A DNA stretch of 34,410 bases, taken from the NCBI GenBank assembly GCA_002753505.1, contig PEAG01000037.1, positions 1 to 34,410 on the forward strand, read 5' to 3'. Origin of the DNA: Magnetococcales bacterium HCHbin5. GTDB taxonomy: Bacteria; Pseudomonadota; Magnetococcia; Magnetococcales; Magnetaquicoccaceae. Below, one piece after another: positions 679-33,735 of the stretch. The position numbers were made by a program, and so were the translations under genes. Numbering within the stretch: position 1 is the first letter of the stretch; each line of letters starts with the position of its first letter. The notes beneath the pieces are model-generated. The model saw only the letters and a program-made list of their open reading frames with translations, was not told where the DNA came from and made no database searches.

Positions 679-1416
679 TCACCGGGTAGTGGCAACGACT
701 TTCTGCATTGCCCTCTCAAAATACCCCGGCAGTTCCCGTTCTATGACGCTCTGGGAGATCTCGAAAAAGGCCAGCCGCTTGCGGTATGAAACTTTCGGCA
801 GAAACGCCAGCACCTGACTGAGCGAGTTGTTCGGGCCCCGCAACCAAACGCCCGGTTTCAACTTGCTGTTCCGACCGGGTTGGATGACCACGTATTGCAG
901 GTTGTTCCTGGCCCGGCCCCCCATTCCCTTGTCGCGGCGGTTCATGTTGAACCCCACCTCGAATAAGGCCCGCATCGCCGACAAAATTTGAATGACCTGT
1001 CCGCGAGACATATTCCCATAGGCATCTTTTCGGGCGGCCGGTCCTGGAACGGCGAACCAGCCACGCGGCAGACTTCTGGAGACATGGACATTTTGGAGCA
1101 TTTGCTCAAATCGCTTGAATGGACGGCTGCCACCATAGACCTGCGGTGCGAGATAGTGCTCTTTGTCCCCTATGTTGGGCGGGTTCTTGAACCAGACCTT
1201 GGCCTGCAGGTTCTGCTCACTGGACAGGATGGTGCGCAGGCTGTCCATGACAAACGGCGTCGGGCGGTCGAAGATCGAATACATCGTCCGCTTCAACTCC
1301 TTCTCTACCACCCGGGCCGTGCTGTTGAGAGCCATGGAGGCGGCAGCAGGAATTTGCTGCGCCATGTCGCTGAAGGCCCGCTGGATGCCGGAACTGTCAA
1401 ACCGAACGCTGATCAT
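679..1416 (-). CDS. phage minor tail protein Z-like protein
   Basis: The 245-residue product starts with a segment reading IPAAASMALNSTAR and ends with a helix ending LPGYFERAMQKVV. Both resemble the N- and C-terminal parts of the lambda minor tail protein GpZ family, which acts at tail completion. The middle, rich in Arg, Gly and aromatic residues, is less recognisable. The ATG at 1416 overlaps the stop of the upstream gene (1413..1703) by four bases, so the two are probably translationally coupled. The next gene downstream is the SWIM protein. The family call rests on remembered similarity; another HK97 gp10-like or morphogenesis protein is possible. A phage structural or assembly role is likelier than the exact family. 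Confidence 0.5.
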   Translation of the reverse strand: MISVRFDSSGIQRAFSDMAQQIPAAASMALNSTARVVEKELKRTMYSIFDRPTPFVMDSLRTILSSEQNLQAKVWFKNPPNIGDKEHYLAPQVYGGSRPFKRFEQMLQNVHVSRSLPRGWFAVPGPAARKDAYGNMSRGQVIQILSAMRALFEVGFNMNRRDKGMGGRARNNLQYVVIQPGRNSKLKPGVWLRGPNNSLSQVLAFLPKVSYRKRLAFFEISQSVIERELPGYFERAMQKVVATTR

Positions 1417-11505: not shown

Positions 11506-11979
11506 TCAGGTGATTTCTTGGCGCAATTTCAAGCCTCGCGCTGCCAGCTTTGATTCAACTTCGTTCAAACAAACTCTTCCAAAATTGATGAATCTCAGCA
11601 GCTCGTTTCTTGAGAATGAACACAATTGGTCAACCGTCTTAATTCCTTCACGTTCCATGACCATCAACAAACGAGCGGATGTGTTTGAACGATGGAAGAA
11701 GGGAACATCATTTCTTTCAAACCTTGCACACTCCTCACCAGGATTAGAGAAGCGAACTATCGTGCACAGCATCTCATTTGGGAGTCCGGTTACCAAATTC
11801 GTCCCATATAATGGTAAGGCACACATAAAATTACGCTCATTTGTCAGCGCATTGCATTCCTTGCAAGCCCGTCTTTCAATGCGACAATATTTGCAGTCAC
11901 GACAATACATGGCCGTTTTCTCCTTGTTTTCCATTGTTATTGTTGCGAGAAGGGAGGCTTTTAAGTGCTCAATACCCAT
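11506..11979 (-). CDS. cysteine-rich/RNA polymerase alpha-CTD-like fusion protein
   Basis: The 157-residue frame has cysteines at 26, 29, 32, 39, 42, 53, 72 and 84, starting YCRDCKYC, like a small cysteine-rich phage protein family that probably binds metal. Residues 100-156 align without gaps to the alpha-CTD of the RpoA encoded at 26,434..27,426, sharing GI, NFGR, L-x-E and GL-x-L. Arg103 matches E. coli R265 and Gly134 matches G296, but the positions of N268, C269, K271, K298 and S299 are Met, Val, Glu, Val and Cys, so ordinary UP-element contacts are mostly lost. Two starts are good: 11979 (AGAGGTG, 10 bp after the upstream stop) and 11910 (AAGGAG), the latter giving a protein beginning MYCRDCKYC. 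A transcription role is inferred. Confidence 0.75.
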   Translation of the reverse strand: MGIEHLKASLLATITMENKEKTAMYCRDCKYCRIERRACKECNALTNERNFMCALPLYGTNLVTGLPNEMLCTIVRFSNPGEECARFERNDVPFFHRSNTSARLLMVMEREGIKTVDQLCSFSRNELLRFINFGRVCLNEVESKLAARGLKLRQEIT

Positions 11980-12411: not shown

Positions 12412-12435
12412 TTCAATCGTTACCTTTGTTGAAAC

Positions 12436-12510
12436 CCGTGCCTTGCCATGCCGTGCAGTGCTCCGCCACGCCTCGCCATGCCACGCCAAGCTGTGCCTTA
12501 CTTGTCTCGC
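12436..12510. repeat. GCCNN pentamer block (single)
   Basis: About 15 consecutive 5-bp units of the form NNGCC on the plus strand (GTGCC, TTGCC, ATGCC, then variants) lie between the end of the helicase gene and the start of the small conserved gene. The preceding GAAACCC resembles the A-rich AAAACCC that begins blocks of the larger array at 16,633-17,229. This appears to be a separate single copy of the same element. Confidence 0.8.
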
Positions 12511-12524
12511 CGCGATATTCAGAA

Positions 12525-14201
12525 TCATGCAATCAATTGTTCCTGTTGCAACCCAGCACCGAACACCAAGCTTTGAATGACTTTTTTGTTGAATTTGAAA
12601 GTCAACAAGCATGATGCTTGATATCGATTCAAGCTGTGGTCGTAACGGTATTCCGCCGGCAGATATTGAAGTTGCTTTTCAGTTGGCATTTCGTTGAGCC
12701 AACGCTTTGTCTTATGGGCACCATTTTCATTTTCGCGCTCGCAAAGCCAGTCATCGGCCGCTGCCAGACAGACGATTCGTTCACCGATGGAGAGCAGACG
12801 TGCAGCAGAACCGGTGGCCCCGCCCACTGCGTACCAGCGACCGTTGAGGAAAAAGATCCCGCTCCAGGCGGTGAAACCGTTGGCCAGCAAGGCCGCGTCG
12901 TCACCGAAGAGGTCCACCCAGAGAAAATTGGACCGTGCCAGCAGATCGACCTCCGTCATCACAAAATCGCTGATGGCCTCCGGACCACTGTTCTCGTCCT
13001 TCTCCCAGACATGCCCGCAGAGAGGACACTCCCGGACAGCCAAGGGAACAATGGCCTCGCACTCCGGGCACACCTTGGTGGGAGCCTCCCCGGTGCCGGT
13101 GCGGCCATCCAGATCCACGTCCTGCTCCAGAGAGCCATGCAGCAGGGTGGAGATACCGAAGTCCAGGACGACGCAATCCGTTTTGACGACTCCGGGGTGT
13201 TCGTTGGGGTCTACTGTCCGCAGCCCCCGACCCACCATCTGAATGAGGGTGGACTTGTACGAACTGGGCCGCAGCAGCACGACGCAGGAGGTGGGCGGGT
13301 GGTCCCACCCCTCCGTCAGCACGGCCACGTTGACCACCAACCGAGCATCGTTCTTTTCAAATCGCCGCAGCACCGTCCGCCGCTCACCGTCGGGCAGTTC
13401 GCCATGAACCAGGACCGCACTCTCCCCCGAGGCGTTGAAGGCGTCGGTGACGTTGCGGGCATGGTCCACGGTGGAGCAAAACACCACGGTCTGGCGGTGC
13501 CCGGCCTGCTCCTTCCAATGCCGGATGACCGCCTCGGTAATCGGGGCCTTGTTCATGATCCGGTCAACCTCAGCCATGTCGAAATCGTCGGCGGTTCTTC
13601 GGACGTTGCGCAGGGATTCGCCAGCACCGATATCAACAACAAAGGTCCGGGGCGGCACCAAGTGGCCGGAGCGAATCAACTCGCCCAGACGTACCTGGTC
13701 CGCCACGTTGGAGAAGATGGGGCGCAACGCCTTTTTGTCGCCCCTCATGGGGGTGGCAGTCACTCCGTAGAGGCGGCACTGCGGATTGCGCTCCCTGGCG
13801 GTATCGATGATGCGGCGATAGCCCGCTGCGGCTGCATGATGGGCCTCGTCGATCACCAGCAGATCCAACGGCGGCATGTTGTCCAGATTGCTCTGCCGCG
13901 CCAGGGTGGGCACCATGGCAAAGGTGGTCCGCCCCCGCCACGACTTGGACTCTGCATCCACGATGGAAGTGGAGAGACCGGGGTTGACCCGGCAGAACTT
14001 GGTGACGTTCTGCCGAGTCAACTCATCCCGATGGGCCAGAACACAGGCCTTGCCACCATTGGCCAGCATCCGACCAACCACGGCGGACAAACACAAAGTT
14101 TTGCCCATGCCGGTTGGGGCTACCGCCAGAGTGTTGCCGTGCTCGTGGAGGGCCTCCACCGACCGATCCACAAAAACCTGTTGTCTGGGCCTGAGAATCA
14201 T
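12525..14201 (-). CDS. superfamily 2 DEAH-box helicase with zinc-finger
   Basis: The 558-residue protein begins at 14201 after GGGAGACAGGGG. It has a Walker A motif APTGMGKT (28-35), DEAH at 118-121, GVTATPMRGD (motif III), and C-terminal helicase motifs including QMVGRGLRTV. A four-cysteine zinc-finger-like part (CPECEAIVP ... CPLCGHVW) follows. It belongs with the RecG/UvsW/type III-like DEAD/DEAH helicases found in phage replication modules and probably unwinds or remodels branched DNA. The C-terminal 150 residues are not recognised. It follows the SSB-like gene by 15 bp. After its stop comes the single pentamer block. Transcription-associated remodelling is another possibility. Confidence 0.88.
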   Translation of the reverse strand: MILRPRQQVFVDRSVEALHEHGNTLAVAPTGMGKTLCLSAVVGRMLANGGKACVLAHRDELTRQNVTKFCRVNPGLSTSIVDAESKSWRGRTTFAMVPTLARQSNLDNMPPLDLLVIDEAHHAAAAGYRRIIDTARERNPQCRLYGVTATPMRGDKKALRPIFSNVADQVRLGELIRSGHLVPPRTFVVDIGAGESLRNVRRTADDFDMAEVDRIMNKAPITEAVIRHWKEQAGHRQTVVFCSTVDHARNVTDAFNASGESAVLVHGELPDGERRTVLRRFEKNDARLVVNVAVLTEGWDHPPTSCVVLLRPSSYKSTLIQMVGRGLRTVDPNEHPGVVKTDCVVLDFGISTLLHGSLEQDVDLDGRTGTGEAPTKVCPECEAIVPLAVRECPLCGHVWEKDENSGPEAISDFVMTEVDLLARSNFLWVDLFGDDAALLANGFTAWSGIFFLNGRWYAVGGATGSAARLLSIGERIVCLAAADDWLCERENENGAHKTKRWLNEMPTEKQLQYLPAEYRYDHSLNRYQASCLLTFKFNKKVIQSLVFGAGLQQEQLIA

Positions 14202-14216: not shown

Positions 14217-15077
14217 TTACTGCGCCCACGTCGGGCGGGCGAAAGTGCCACCAGCGTTCTGTGCCTGGGCAGGTGCCTGCTGTTGGGGCTGATACCCATT
14301 GGTTGCGGGTGCCGGTTGCTGCTGGGGCTGGAATCCGGTCGCTGCCGGAGCCTGCACCTGGGGTTGCGCCTGCGTCTGAAACGCAGCCTGCGGTTGTGCC
14401 TGCGTTTGAGAGGGAGCCTGCGCCGGTGCCTGGAACACAGCCGGAGCCTGTGCCGCAGGTTGAAAAGTGGACTGACCCTGTGCCTGAGGTTGAAACCCGG
14501 ACTGGGCATGACCGCCTCCGGACGCCGGACGGAACGAGGTGGACGGTTGGAATCCTGCCGCCGCCGGGACCGCCCCGGATTGGAAGGCGACATATTCCTT
14601 GTGGTCCGGGGTGACGGCAAACTTGATGACATTTTTGGGTTGATCATTTTGATCCCTCTCCACGTCAATCTTGGCCAAAAACTCGATGCCATCCAGATCG
14701 GCAAACCCGCGAATGCGGCGGGCTTCCATGGCACGCGGGGTGGTATCCTTGTCCGACAGGCCGTGCGCAGAGTTGAGAATGCCACGGATGAAAGCCCTCC
14801 CCATGTTGGCCCAATCGTGGCCTTTGGGACTGTAGAGGCCAATCAGGCTCCAGATCTTGCGTTTGGCGAATTCCCCCTGGGTCACCACAAACTCGCAGTT
14901 CAGGTAGACCGCATCGCTCTCCTTGGCACGGGTGGCATAGCCCCCGGTCCAACCCTGAATGTGGTCATCCAGACCACCAGGCTTGATCGTCATGCGCACA
15001 GGTGCAACAGCCCCCTTCGGAATAAGATCAAAGTTGTTCTGCGCGTCGGCGTCATTGAAGTCGTTCCATGCTGGCAT
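14217..15077 (-). CDS. SSB-like protein with Gln/Pro/Ala-rich tail
   Basis: The 286-residue protein has a globular N-terminal part of about 165 residues, followed by a long tail of Gln, Pro and Ala with repeated FQPQ- and YQPQQQ-like units. The N-terminal part contains KPGGLDDHIQGWTGGYA and FAKRKIWSLIGLYSPKG. This arrangement, and its place directly after the Sak4-like gene, suggest a phage single-stranded-DNA-binding protein that works with the annealing ATPase; an OB-fold is inferred, not shown. The C-terminus ends with Phe-Ala-Arg-Pro-Thr-Trp-Ala-Gln rather than an acidic SSB tip. The tail gives the region low complexity and produces long open frames on the other strand. Confidence 0.6.
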   Translation of the reverse strand: MPAWNDFNDADAQNNFDLIPKGAVAPVRMTIKPGGLDDHIQGWTGGYATRAKESDAVYLNCEFVVTQGEFAKRKIWSLIGLYSPKGHDWANMGRAFIRGILNSAHGLSDKDTTPRAMEARRIRGFADLDGIEFLAKIDVERDQNDQPKNVIKFAVTPDHKEYVAFQSGAVPAAAGFQPSTSFRPASGGGHAQSGFQPQAQGQSTFQPAAQAPAVFQAPAQAPSQTQAQPQAAFQTQAQPQVQAPAATGFQPQQQPAPATNGYQPQQQAPAQAQNAGGTFARPTWAQ

Positions 15078-15101: not shown

Positions 15102-15968
15102 TTAGTTGGTTGCGGTGTTGGCCTCGGCGGGAGCCGGTTGGCCGTATTCAAGACGCTCCTGGATGGGGCGAACCGGACCACTGATTTTGGCCATCAGACG
15201 TCCCAGATGCGGTTCCTCAACGGTGGTCAAACGCCCGGAACGATCCTTGGCAGGAAAGCCCCAGGGGTTCATGGTCTGACAGACGAAGGCCCGGAAAAGC
15301 TGGCCGGTCTCGGTGGGCAGTTCCGCCATGGTGATCACCTGATCAACGATGCCCGGCAACTCCAGACCGGTCTTGCTGCCTTCAATCTGCGGTGCGAAGT
15401 ACCGCTTGTTGAAGTCGTCAAACTTTTCATCCAGAATGCCGACAAAGAAAATGTTCTTCTCTCGAGTGTGCTGGATGTGGCTCAACCAGCTGATCATCTC
15501 CTGGCCGTGCAGGCCGTAGGCTCCGCGCAAATCCGGTTTACCGGTCTTTTCGCTGAACGCCTGCGGTTGCCCCTTGCACCAGTGGAAGCAGAGCCGACCG
15601 GCCACGGTCAAGGAATCGACGAAGATGGTCTGGTACTTGTCCAGAATCCTGGGGTCGCCGAATTGGGCGCAGACCGCATTGTAATGGGCCTGGGAGAAAT
15701 ACTGGTCGTTGCGCAGTGCCGGGTTGGGGCCGCCGATGAAGACCGCAAAATCCCGGCACTCGTCCCAGGTGCGTGGGCGAATGGTATCGCCGGGCCATCC
15801 CTCCACCGCCAAGTCGCCCGCTTCCAGATCGAAGAACAGGGTGGTTGCCGGGTCCAGGCTCAACAGCAGGGTAGTTTTGCCGATGCCCGACTTGCCGAAG
15901 ATGCACGCCTTGATGCCATGCCGTTCGGCCATGCGCTGATCGGCAGTGATGATTGGGAGGGCGCACAT
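15102..15968 (-). CDS. Sak4-like RecA-fold recombination ATPase
   Basis: The 288-residue protein has the Walker A sequence GKSGIGKTT (25-33), a Walker B-like strand TIFVDSLT, and the layout of phage AAA_24/Sak4 proteins, a RecA-core-only family that anneals single strands, often with an SSB. The start at 15968 overlaps the previous stop as TAATG and has GGAGG seven bases upstream; the later Met13 (MAERHGIKA) is a weaker alternative. Its neighbours, SSB-like downstream and a conserved phage protein upstream, fit a recombination module. The call is from motif and context; the alternative is a generic phage AAA ATPase. It acts in the cytoplasm on replicating phage DNA. Confidence 0.8.
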   Translation of the reverse strand: MCALPIITADQRMAERHGIKACIFGKSGIGKTTLLLSLDPATTLFFDLEAGDLAVEGWPGDTIRPRTWDECRDFAVFIGGPNPALRNDQYFSQAHYNAVCAQFGDPRILDKYQTIFVDSLTVAGRLCFHWCKGQPQAFSEKTGKPDLRGAYGLHGQEMISWLSHIQHTREKNIFFVGILDEKFDDFNKRYFAPQIEGSKTGLELPGIVDQVITMAELPTETGQLFRAFVCQTMNPWGFPAKDRSGRLTTVEEPHLGRLMAKISGPVRPIQERLEYGQPAPAEANTATN

Positions 15969-16561
15969 TACGCTGCCTCCTTCCGAGCCAAGTCATTGAC
16001 CACCCACTGAGTTACGACAAATTTGCCGAACGGCCCTTTGCACGCCGGGCGGAAGTCGCCGAGGCCGATCCGACTTCCCGCCGCATCGATGATTTCACGG
16101 AGGAGCTTGACCGTCATCATCGAGTCGTCGATGGTGATCGTGAACCGCAGTTTCCAGTCGTTGAAGGATGGCCGATGGGAGAGGATACGCCCACCGGTCG
16201 AAGGGATCCGAACCGCACGAGTGTCCACAGTCCACGGTTCCGTGTGTTCGATTGGAAGCTCAATCTCATCGATAGCCATGCACGCTGGAATCATTGACGA
16301 TTTTTGCGTCGTGATAAGACTTTTTCCGGCCTTGAAAAATTTCCCGCCGTCGATGATGGCCCGGAACAGATTGGGAGCCGGAATCATCACCTGATCAGAG
16401 TTCCCCACATACAGCTTGCTCTCCGCAATCTCCCTCGGAGTGCCACGGTCACCGACGACACCGCTACGCGTCCCAGAGGTAGACGCCAGTTGGGCAGCGT
16501 CACCGAATTTGTTGCACAACAGCGGCGTTATGCCTTCGATTTCAATAGAAATGCTCTTCAT
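15968..16561 (-). CDS. phage protein with RAMP-like features, unknown role
   Basis: The start at 16561 follows GGAGG eight bases upstream; a longer frame to 16771 is pentamer-repeat sequence and not translated in my view. The 197-residue protein begins MKSISIEIEGITPLL, continues with PREIAESKLY and IPAPNLFRAI, and ends with GLGDFRPACKGPFGKFVVTQW. I know this pattern from a widespread phage family found next to Sak4 or other annealing proteins. The glycine-rich end and the opening strand recall the RAMP/Cas7 ferredoxin fold, which suggests RNA or single-strand DNA binding, but this is inference. No CRISPR genes are present. It is coupled to the Sak4-like gene by a TAATG overlap. Confidence 0.7.
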   Translation of the reverse strand: MKSISIEIEGITPLLCNKFGDAAQLASTSGTRSGVVGDRGTPREIAESKLYVGNSDQVMIPAPNLFRAIIDGGKFFKAGKSLITTQKSSMIPACMAIDEIELPIEHTEPWTVDTRAVRIPSTGGRILSHRPSFNDWKLRFTITIDDSMMTVKLLREIIDAAGSRIGLGDFRPACKGPFGKFVVTQWVVNDLARKEAA

Positions 16562-16632
16562 TTTTTTGTCCTCCAATTTAAGGTTATGATTTCCGCATTG
16601 ATGTGCGGATGTTAAAAACTGCTTAAAAACCC
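16562..16632. promoter_or_regulatory. leader between pentamer array and RAMP-like gene
   Basis: This short stretch holds the GGAGG ribosome-binding site of the gene at 15968..16561 and an A/T-rich part (GTTAAAAACTGCTTAAAAACCC on the plus strand, 16,611-16,632), which serves as the first A-rich separator of the pentamer array. Confidence 0.5.
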
Positions 16633-17229
16633 TTGCCATGCCATGCCTCGCCTGGCATTGCCACGCCCAGCCCTGCCCAGCCCAGCCACGAAAAACAAAA
16701 ATCACATTAAAACCTCGCCTTGCCCCGCCAGGCCACGCATTGCCTTGCCCAGCCATGCACTGCATTGCCAAGCCTTACCATACCTGTCCAAACCAAATCA
16801 CAGAAAAAACCCTTGCCTTGCCGCACCGTGCAACGCCGCGCATCGCCCAGCCGTGCCCTTCCTTGCCGCTCCGAGCCTCGCCTCGCCTGGCCACGTCATG
16901 AAAACCAAATCACTTAAAAAACCCGTGCCTTGCCATGCCTCGCCATGCTATGCCGCGCCTGGCATTGCCACGCCCAGCCCTGCCTCGCTGTGCCGTACCA
17001 TGTTGATTTGCCTGTGGTAAACTAATTAGTAAAATCCATGCCTTGCCGCGCCTTGCCTAGCCCCGCCTTGCCCCACCTAGCCTTGCCATGCATCGCATCG
17101 CCATGCTGGTCAGAACAAATCACGATTAAAAAACCCTCGCTGCGCCTCGCCATTCCATGCATCGCCAATCCGTGCCGTACATCGCCACGCATAGCCTGTC
17201 CGAGCCGGTCATCGCCTCGCCCCGCAGCA
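16633..17229. repeat. six-block phased GCCNN pentamer array
   Basis: Six blocks built from 5-bp units NNGCC lie at about 16,633-16,690, 16,715-16,789, 16,813-16,899, 16,925-16,999, 17,038-17,111 and 17,136-17,229. Within a block the phase is kept although the NN positions change; for example, 16,925-16,999 is exactly 15 units. Blocks are separated by A/T-rich spacers of about 23-38 bp. Four of these share AATCAC (starts 16,700, 16,796, 16,908 and 17,118) followed by an A-run and CC or CCC. The array fills the gap between two genes of the early operon and does not encode a convincing protein. Confidence 0.92.
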
Positions 17230-17700
17230 TCAAACCGTTTTTTCAAACTGGAAGCTCTGTTTCCCAGTCCGAACCGTTCTGGCATCCACAAAGGCATCCC
17301 TGATATGGAGTGGCCATGCGGAAAATTTCCTCTCATCAACGGTCAGCGTTGTTTTGATGTACTCACTGACATCCTCACCGCTCTCCGCAATACGGGTGGC
17401 GATAGTTGCCAGTTTTCCCTGATCCCACGAGACTTCTTTTTTCTGGTCGGCGATAAGCTCAATGCCGTCTTCGTGAAACCGTACAATGCCAAACTCTTTA
17501 CCGCTTTCCTGCCGGATAGCAGTGGCCCGATCACCAAAACGGCGTGCCAGCACTCCATTGAGCAGGTCGCTGACCAGTTTGGTTTGGCTGACCGCCTCGG
17601 CCACCTCTTTCTGGAGACGGGCCAGTTCACCGACTGGCAGGGCCGCGACATCGCCCAGGGGCATTTGTCGCAGTTGATTAAGCGTGATGGGTTGGTTCAT
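17230..17700 (-). CDS. conserved phage recombination-module protein, unknown role
   Basis: The start at 17700 is set by AAAGGAG eight bases upstream, giving 156 residues. The N-terminus (MNQPITLNQLRQMPLGDVAALPVGELARLQKEVAEA) is helical. The rest includes SWDQGKLATIATRIAESGEDVSEYI and DERKFSAWPLHIRDAF before an end reading ARTVRTGKQSFQFEK. I recognise this pattern from phages where it sits just before annealing-ATPase modules, but I know no function. It overlaps the RHH gene upstream by 23 bases and is separated from the RAMP-like gene by the pentamer array. A longer frame to 17793 lies in another gene's coding sequence and is rejected. Confidence 0.7.
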   Translation of the reverse strand: MNQPITLNQLRQMPLGDVAALPVGELARLQKEVAEAVSQTKLVSDLLNGVLARRFGDRATAIRQESGKEFGIVRFHEDGIELIADQKKEVSWDQGKLATIATRIAESGEDVSEYIKTTLTVDERKFSAWPLHIRDAFVDARTVRTGKQSFQFEKTV

Positions 17701-20499: not shown

Positions 20500-20556
20500 G
20501 CCGTGCCTTCCTCCCGGTTGCGTGTTGAACATGGGACGGATGGTAGCAGGGGGGAA

Positions 20557-20600
20557 GGTAGGAGAAAGGAAGGAGAAAGGTAGGGAAAAGGTAGGAGCAA
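20557..20600. repeat. iteron cluster 1: four 11-bp tandem repeats
   Basis: Four exactly abutting 11-mers start at 20557, 20568, 20579 and 20590 with the consensus GGTAGGAGMAA; the second and third have one or more changes. They lie downstream of the predicted early promoter and about 60 bp upstream of the HTH_17 start codon. The period is about one helical turn, so a bound protein would occupy one face of the DNA. Confidence 0.85.
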
Positions 20601-20745: not shown

Positions 20746-20765
20746 TGAAAAACGGGGGAGAGGCA

Positions 20766-20798
20766 GGTAGGAGCAAGGTAGGAACAAGGTAGGAGCAG
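20766..20798. repeat. iteron cluster 2: three 11-bp tandem repeats
   Basis: GGTAGGAGCAA, GGTAGGAACAA and GGTAGGAGCAG start at 20766, 20777 and 20788. They have the same orientation and period as cluster 1, which lies about 165 bp to the left across an A/T-rich stretch. Beyond cluster 2, up to 20,882, the sequence is purine-rich with no gene. Confidence 0.85.
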
Positions 20799-33430: not shown

Positions 33431-33735
33431 ACCCAGCCACCACTCCGTGTTGGCAGAAACCACTCCAACGCGTTGGTCACACACCGCGACAGACCGCAAA
33501 AACGGCGCGTACCCAGCCATCACTCCGTGTTGGAAGAAACCCCAGCACACACCGCGACAGGCCGCAAAAGCGGCGCATACCCAGCCACCACTCCGTGTTG
33601 GCAGAAAACCACTCCAGCGCGTAGCCACCCCCCGCACACACCGCGACAGGACGCAAAAGCGGCGAGTACCCAGCCACCACTCCGTGTTGGCTGAAACCGT
33701 CGCACACACCGCGACAGGCCGCAAAAGCGGCGCGT
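33431..33735. repeat. irregular tandem repeat with hairpin cores
   Basis: The 23-base sequence beginning ACCCAGCCACCACTCCGTGT occurs at 33431, 33511, 33579 and 33668, with slight changes; a weaker copy precedes near 33,365. Between copies lies CACACCGCGACAG-CCGC-AAAA-GCGG (starts about 33478, 33546, 33635 and 33703). GCCGC-AAAA-GCGGC forms a perfect hairpin in two copies and is shortened in the other two. Unit lengths of 80, 68 and 89 bp show it is not a simple tandem array. Confidence 0.85.

What the first reader, a model, noticed from the sequence alone, without database searches (positions are those of the whole stretch)
16611..17229. Six blocks of phased GCCNN pentamers separated by a shared A/T-rich spacer
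The gap between two early-operon genes is filled with 5-bp units NNGCC whose phase is kept through each block although NN varies freely (16,925-16,999 is exactly 15 units). Four of the A/T-rich spacers share AATCAC followed by an A-run and CC or CCC (AATCAC at 16,700, 16,796, 16,908 and 17,118). On the minus strand, the direction of transcription, each module reads (GGCNN)n, then GG or GGG, a T-run and GTGATT. Conservation of period rather than sequence suggests selection for DNA shape (half a helical turn), for repeated protein sites, or for a repetitive RNA made inside the operon. I know of no described function.
Basis: seen in the sequence. Interest (0 to 1): 0.75.

Follow-up and report, generated by a model that had tools for sequence, protein, structure and literature searches.

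The report
Phage guide-RNA array aimed at rivals
The repeated five-base blocks are the guide RNAs of a recently described virus-made, CRISPR-like system called VIPR, and several of them can be decoded to show that this prophage's guides match replication and recombination genes of related prophages better than its own copies.

Summary
The 5-bp GCC phasing at 16,630-17,236 far exceeds shuffles (36 in-phase GCC pairs against 1.9 ± 1.3).

On the minus strand each block is (GGY-NN)n plus a GG(G/A)TTT tail, the form of the guide RNA (vrRNA) of a VIPR system (preprint PMC13142463). The adjacent gene, 15,968-16,561, encodes its RAMP protein Vipr: profile match to the solved SUSP1 Vipr chain (E = 2.4e-14) and a model with a Cas7/Csm3 fold (Z 11.7).

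Decoding NN pairs with VIPR's one-base-skip rule gives targets for four of seven vrRNAs, all in the same operon of related Magnetococcales prophages: A matches phrog_2480, C and F sak4, G the helicase. Skipped bases fall on codon wobble positions. Only skip 1 gives an excess (13 of 193 modules; 0 of 579 permuted guides).

The window's own alleles match worse than nearly all others. Array and vipr are present or absent together between phrog_2480 and sak4; two array-less sibling prophage contigs lie in the same genome assembly.

It is a new member of a very new, known kind. Expression and silencing are inferred, not shown.

The parts
17134..17236 (-). vrRNA module A, 21 units; units GC GG GA GA CC TC CA TA GT GA AC AC TT GA match the phrog_2480 gene of array-less sibling prophages; its 5' end overlaps the 3' end of the own phrog_2480 gene
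17035..17107 (-). vrRNA module B, 15 units, no target found
16922..16999 (-). vrRNA module C, 16 units; 8-unit core AG TG GT AA CA GC AT AT matches sak4 genes
16810..16892 (-). vrRNA module D, 17 units, no target found
16712..16794 (-). vrRNA module E, 17 units, no convincing target
16630..16687 (-). vrRNA module F, 12 units; first 11 units match sak4 genes of other prophages (up to 22 of 22 bases)
12435..12502 (-). vrRNA module G, a separate single module between the helicase and DUF6511 genes; 8 units match the helicase gene of related prophages
16688..16711 (-). linker between modules E and F: E tail TTTTAAT followed by GTGATT (AATCAC on the + strand); linkers of the same kind at 16795-16809, 16893-16921 and 17108-17133 (17000-17034 lacks GTGATT)
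15968..16561 (-). vipr gene, 197 aa RAMP protein with glycine-rich motif RIGLGDFRPACKGPFGKF
17230..17700 (-). phrog_2480 core phage gene of unknown function; its second half is diverged from array-less siblings and lacks the module A target
17327..17385 (-). own counterpart of the module A target in phrog_2480: 16 of 28 bases, background level
15102..15968 (-). sak4-like AAA ATPase gene (recombination), directly downstream of vipr; its orthologues in other prophages are the module C/F target
15466..15501 (+). own counterpart of the module F target inside sak4 (18 of 22 bases): own sak4 codons AGC, AGC, ATC where L245/L255 have GCC, ACG, CTC
12525..14201 (-). helicase gene (phrog_16); its orthologues in other prophages are the module G target; own site about 13623-13646 (TFVVDIGA, 13 of 16)
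14217..15077 (-). ssDNA-binding-like gene (phrog_2300) of the same operon

Best explanation
This is a prophage-borne VIPR locus: seven vrRNA guides (six in tandem, one 4 kb downstream) plus a single Vipr RAMP protein. The region is transcribed leftward; each (GGY-NN)n block becomes a short RNA of roughly 60-110 nt coated by Vipr subunits. The NN pairs, read with one skipped target base between pairs, base-pair with double-stranded DNA of rival prophages, and binding blocks transcription. The guides that can be decoded match the replication/recombination operon of sibling phages (phrog_2480, sak4, helicase), so the likely effect is to stop closely related co-resident or superinfecting phages from replicating. 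The carrier escapes its own guides through diverged alleles: a different second half of phrog_2480, and changes at paired (first or second) codon positions in sak4 and helicase. Shown here: arrays, Vipr homology and predicted fold, joint presence/absence of array and vipr, one-skip matches with controls, mismatched own alleles. Inferred from the preprint's work on other VIPR systems: transcription, processing, RNP formation, DNA binding, silencing.
For: Array statistics. The preprint describes vrRNAs of 9-16 YNNGG repeats next to a RAMP gene in phages, read by a 1-nt skip rule. The 197-aa product matches phiSUSP1 and the PDB chain 36pp 'SUSP1 Vipr protein' (phmmer E 7e-8; profile over its full length E 2.4e-14). 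The model (pLDDT 82) has Csm3/Cas7 proteins as best matches, Z up to 11.7. All GGY arrays detected beside Vipr relatives lie on the vipr strand; phiSUSP1 shows the same kind of arrays at the expected places. Module C/F core: 46 sites in 61 genomes against 4 for the reversed pattern; 42 viral contigs with an exact 10-unit module F match, all inside sak4 homologues. 193 modules scanned with skips 0-3: only skip 1 shows an excess, 13 modules scoring 16 or more against 0 of 579 permuted guides. Targets of A, C, F, G and of guides in six related loci fall in phrog_2480, sak4, helicase or ssb with the skip at the wobble base. Own alleles score 16/28, 18/22, 12/16 and 13/16, against up to 27, 22, 16 and 16 elsewhere.
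Against: No transcript or binding data exist for this locus. Modules B, D and E have no target in the sequences searched. No vap gene was recognised, although the preprint says loci typically have one. Targets are conserved protein motifs, so the many hits of one guide are one family and not independent events, and some of the 46 sites lie in another conserved gene. The prophages in the local scan were partly collected through module F, which biases the scan for F and C, though not for A, G and the relatives' guides. L254's sak4 scores below the window's own for F and C. Enrichment of own substitutions at target sites is modest (p 0.012 for sak4 against L255, 0.033 for helicase, uncorrected), and one of the sak4 changes (AGC) is shared with the array-less L246.
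Confidence: 0.9

Rival explanations
1. It is a VIPR locus, but the guides act within the phage's own life cycle, tuning its own operon (the targets are orthologues of its own neighbouring genes), rather than against rivals.
For: Targets are orthologues of the genes that flank the array: A lies beside its own phrog_2480, F beside vipr and sak4, G beside the helicase. Own sak4 keeps 18 of 22 matches, above the permuted background of 12.4.
Against: Own alleles are generally the worst or nearly worst matches (A 16/28, at background; G 13/16; L257 14/18 and L251 15/20 for their own guides), while array-less siblings match almost perfectly. Self-regulation would predict the reverse.
Confidence: 0.07
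2. The array is a DNA-structure or multivalent protein-binding element (half-helical-turn phasing) such as a partition, replication or packaging site read by the ParB, RHH or SSB-like proteins of the operon.
For: Strict 5-bp phase; ParB-like and Arc/RHH-like genes lie just upstream.
Against: ParB, phrog_2480, sak4, ssb and helicase persist in prophages without the array, while arrays track vipr. NN pairs decode to genes with the skip-1 rule only. Arrays keep one strand relative to vipr.
Confidence: 0.02
3. Neutral expansion of a pentanucleotide microsatellite, or a repetitive coding frame.
For: Pentameric tandem repeats can slip; open frames cross the array by chance.
Against: NN pairs vary while GGY is largely kept, separate blocks share similar tails, NN content differs between relatives, a period of 5 does not keep one reading frame, and guides match gene targets far above permuted controls.
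Confidence: 0.01

Closest known systems
VIPR system of Escherichia phage phiSUSP1 (preprint PMC13142463; Vipr chain in PDB 36pp)
   Same: RAMP protein of about 20 kDa, homologous over its whole length; vrRNA blocks of GGY-NN units on the vipr strand in flanking intergenic space; one-base-skip decoding; skipped base at codon wobble; targets in competing phage elements
   Different: About 25% protein identity; glycine-loop insertion (FRPxCKGPFGKF against WRPRFGRF); GGC instead of mostly GGT; short GG(A/G)TTT tail instead of the structured tail of SUSP1; no recognised vap gene; six tandem guides upstream of vipr plus a distant one; decoded targets are the recombination/replication operon of sibling prophages, whereas the preprint's main text reports satellites, lysogeny regulators and other VIPRs
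Cas7-family subunits of type III/VII CRISPR-Cas (Csm3 and others)
   Same: RAMP fold in the predicted model (best Z 11.7 to Csm3); guide-RNA-coating role proposed by the preprint
   Different: No CRISPR array and no cas genes recognised beside it; guides are gapped pentamers; by sequence the only significant solved-structure match is Vipr

Membership tests
VIPR system | Vipr protein: RAMP homologue of about 20 kDa | tested here: met
   197 aa; profile match to SUSP1 Vipr E 2.4e-14 over positions 1-183; Cas7/Csm3 fold, Z up to 11.7
VIPR system | vrRNA sequence: tandem GGY/NN pentamers, fixed GGY and variable NN, in intergenic DNA near vipr | tested here: met
VIPR system | Invariable 3' tail after the repeat tract | tested here: met
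   GG(A/G)TTT recurs after most modules in the window and its close relatives, and the last NN units are A-rich (AA in 48 and 46 of 76); a conserved fold of the tail was not tested and the tail is much shorter than in SUSP1
VIPR system | Targets found with a 1-nt skip and not with 0, 2 or 3 | tested here: met
VIPR system | Skipped base falls on codon wobble position | tested here: met
VIPR system | Encoded mainly by phages, prophages or other mobile elements | tested here: met
   Sak4-like, ssb-like, phrog_16 helicase, primase/helicase and serine-integrase matches in the window
VIPR system | vap accessory gene next to vipr | tested here: inconclusive
   vipr is followed directly by sak4, which also occurs in array-less siblings; the vap families are in supplements that could not be read
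VIPR system | vrRNA expressed, bound by Vipr, and repressing its target | not testable with these tools
   needs RNA-seq, pull-down and reporter assays
CRISPR-Cas class 1 | CRISPR repeat-spacer array with adaptation and effector cas genes | tested here: not met
   Blocks are degenerate pentamers without long CRISPR repeats; Pfam and PADLOC scans of the flanking genes gave no Cas protein beyond generic helicase similarity

The most novel reading that the evidence does not exclude
The cassette carries its own immunity: a segment holding an immune second half of phrog_2480, the guide array and vipr is exchanged as a unit into a compact operon where phrog_2480 and sak4 normally overlap. Resident sak4 and helicase then escape the guides by mild changes at paired codon positions, because wobble changes cannot help. 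Related phages would thus be driven into guide-and-escape contests over the same few motifs of their shared replication operon.
Probability: 0.5. Interest if true: 0.75.

Novelty: new member of a known kind. Interest (0 to 1): 0.62.

Why it matters
VIPR has been described only in a preprint a few months old. This locus adds Magnetococcales prophages and tests the decoding rule on natural guides of a distant lineage: skip 1 alone gives targets. It also shows something the preprint's main text does not describe: guides aimed at the same operon of sibling phages, together with mismatches in the carrier's own alleles and clean empty sites. That makes self/non-self discrimination and the spread of VIPR cassettes directly testable with short DNA targets in a reporter assay.

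Tried and rejected
Rfam: no hit at gathering scores; weak SAM-III and lncRNA matches on the array are far below cut-off. tRNA scan empty. PADLOC: no hit for the Vipr protein. Module A: a 12-unit pattern with up to 3 mismatches found nothing in 61 genomes, because it included units outside the matching stretch; the local scan found its target. Modules B, D, E: single 3-mismatch hits at control level. Exact 9-unit viral scan for D: none. For E: 17 hits that do not extend and lie mostly in A/T-rich contigs, so chance. Module C with both flanks: none in viral contigs. Promoter and terminator scans uninformative. DNA-shape and partition-site readings rejected because arrays follow vipr and not parB or rhh.

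Full report
Observation. This is correct. GCC triplets recur at exactly 5 bp 36 times, against 1.9 ± 1.3 in dinucleotide shuffles, with no GCC pairs at spacings of 3, 4 or 6-9; autocorrelation at multiples of 5 stays above 0.39 out to 30 bp. AATCAC sits where stated. Perfect five-unit runs occur nowhere else in the 4.19-Mb genome assembly.

Identity. A paper search returned a 2026 preprint (PMC13142463, read). It describes VIPR: a phage-encoded RAMP protein, Vipr, with guide RNAs (vrRNAs) made of 9-16 tandem GGY/NN pentamers and a 3' tail. The NN pairs recognise double-stranded DNA with one skipped target base per unit, and the complex represses transcription. On the minus strand our blocks read (GGC-NN)n, then GG(G/A)TTT. 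The gene directly downstream, 15,968-16,561, encodes 197 aa. It matches a protein of phiSUSP1 (ALH47069.1). The PDB chain named 'SUSP1 Vipr protein' (36pp) is its only significant sequence match among solved structures: E 7e-8 alone, 2.4e-14 as a 25-sequence profile over its whole length. An AlphaFold model (pLDDT 82, pTM 0.80) matches Cas7-type RAMP subunits throughout, best Csm3 with Z 11.7, rmsd 4.0 over 160 residues. The phiSUSP1 record shows GGY arrays around its vipr and the next gene.

Relatives and empty sites. Vipr relatives, mostly 55-73% identical, occur in 22 viral contigs and in genomes labelled Magnetococcales, Desulfocapsa and others; 10 of 61 genomes searched (own included) match. 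GGY arrays found near vipr lie on the vipr strand; some loci show none at the threshold used. The window's operon ParB - phrog_2480 - sak4 - ssb - helicase - DUF6511 is colinear in many Magnetococcales prophages. Carriers (window, L254, L256, L257, L258, L260, L261) have array and vipr between phrog_2480 and sak4. L245-L250, L252, L255 and L264 have neither there; the phrog_2480 stop typically overlaps the sak4 start (TGATG). L245 and L246 come from other contigs of the window's own genome assembly. L251 lacks this cassette but carries a different, diverged Vipr with staggered arrays elsewhere.

Decoding. NN lists were read as NNxNNx. A core shared by modules C and F was tried in 61 relative genomes: 46 sites against 4 for the reversed pattern. 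Module F (GTx TGx TGx AGx TGx GTx AAx CAx GAx ATx ATx) matches 20-22 of 22 bases in the sak4 gene of array-less siblings. An exact pattern of 10 of its units (20 bases, GA left free) found 42 viral contigs, all inside sak4 homologues. A scan of 193 modules from Vipr loci with skips 0-3 and three permutations each gave 13 modules scoring 16 or more with skip 1, none with skips 0, 2 or 3, and none of 579 permuted guides at skip 1. Module A matches phrog_2480 (up to 27 of 28 bases in 14 units), C and F match sak4, G matches the helicase (16 of 16). Guides of L254, L256 and L258 match phrog_2480, of L257 sak4, of L260 helicase and of L251 ssb. In these matches the paired bases are codon positions 1 and 2 and the skipped base is the wobble. 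The 3'-most units, mostly AA, AC or AT, do not match targets: AA fills 48 of 76 last and 46 of 76 second-last units, so they may act as a constant handle (inference).

Own alleles. For module A all carriers score 16-18 of 28, near the permuted background, while array-less siblings score 20-27. The window's phrog_2480 is 65-95% identical (blocks of 20) to most same-genus siblings over its first 60 residues but 28-60% further on; in that second half carriers resemble each other more (57%) than they resemble non-carriers (45%). The cassette may therefore have entered together with an immune second half of that gene (inference). In sak4 the own motif EMISWLSHIQHT stands where L245 and L255 have EMIAWLTHLQHT; in the helicase TFVVDIGA stands where siblings have TFVIDVGT. 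The differences fall at paired codon positions (GCC to AGC, ACG to AGC, CTC to ATC; ATT to GTT, GTC to ATC, ACC to GCT). The first of these is shared with the array-less L246. Module F asks for serine as TCx, as in L247, while the window and L246 encode serine as AGC, a codon switch that breaks both paired bases. Enrichment of substitutions at the sites is p 0.012 and 0.033, uncorrected. The window's score is lowest or tied lowest for A and G, and second lowest for F and C after L254.

Mechanism. Shown: arrays, homologous RAMP protein, joint presence/absence, gapped matches, mismatched own alleles. Inferred from the preprint: RNA production, Vipr coating, DNA binding and repression. Likely purpose: to silence the replication/recombination operon of sibling phages in the same cell.

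Limits. Modules B, D and E have no known target. The type among the seven VIPR types could not be assigned because supplements are not readable here. Hits of one guide across many genomes reflect one conserved motif. The two sibling contigs may be co-resident prophages or strain mixture in the assembly.

Noticed in passing
L251 (G002:C398) 938-1257 and 1981-2301: A second, diverged VIPR system in the same phage family: another Vipr-like ORF (GFGVGVGEWRPEKDGMHGRF motif) flanked by staggered, tightly packed GGY arrays; one guide matches an ssb gene of a sibling prophage at 20 of 20 bases.
   Followed up: partly
L249 (G010:C81) 952-1024, minus strand: An apparently orphan vrRNA-like block with a GGGTTTC tail in a prophage whose sak4 operon lacks vipr.
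   Followed up: no
L152 3140-3935: A 12-module vrRNA array with nearly identical GGATTTTAG separators directly upstream of a vipr gene, a very regular example.
   Followed up: no
window 11506-11979: Phage-encoded protein with an RNA polymerase alpha C-terminal domain (Pfam E 9.8e-10) beside a DUF6511 gene.
   Followed up: no
window 33478-33607: A 68-bp tandem repeat, 1.9 copies at 91% matches, just beyond the 1441-aa ORF.
   Followed up: no
window 20555-20597 and 20765-20797: Two short arrays of an 11-bp repeat (AAGGTAGGAGA-like).
   Followed up: no
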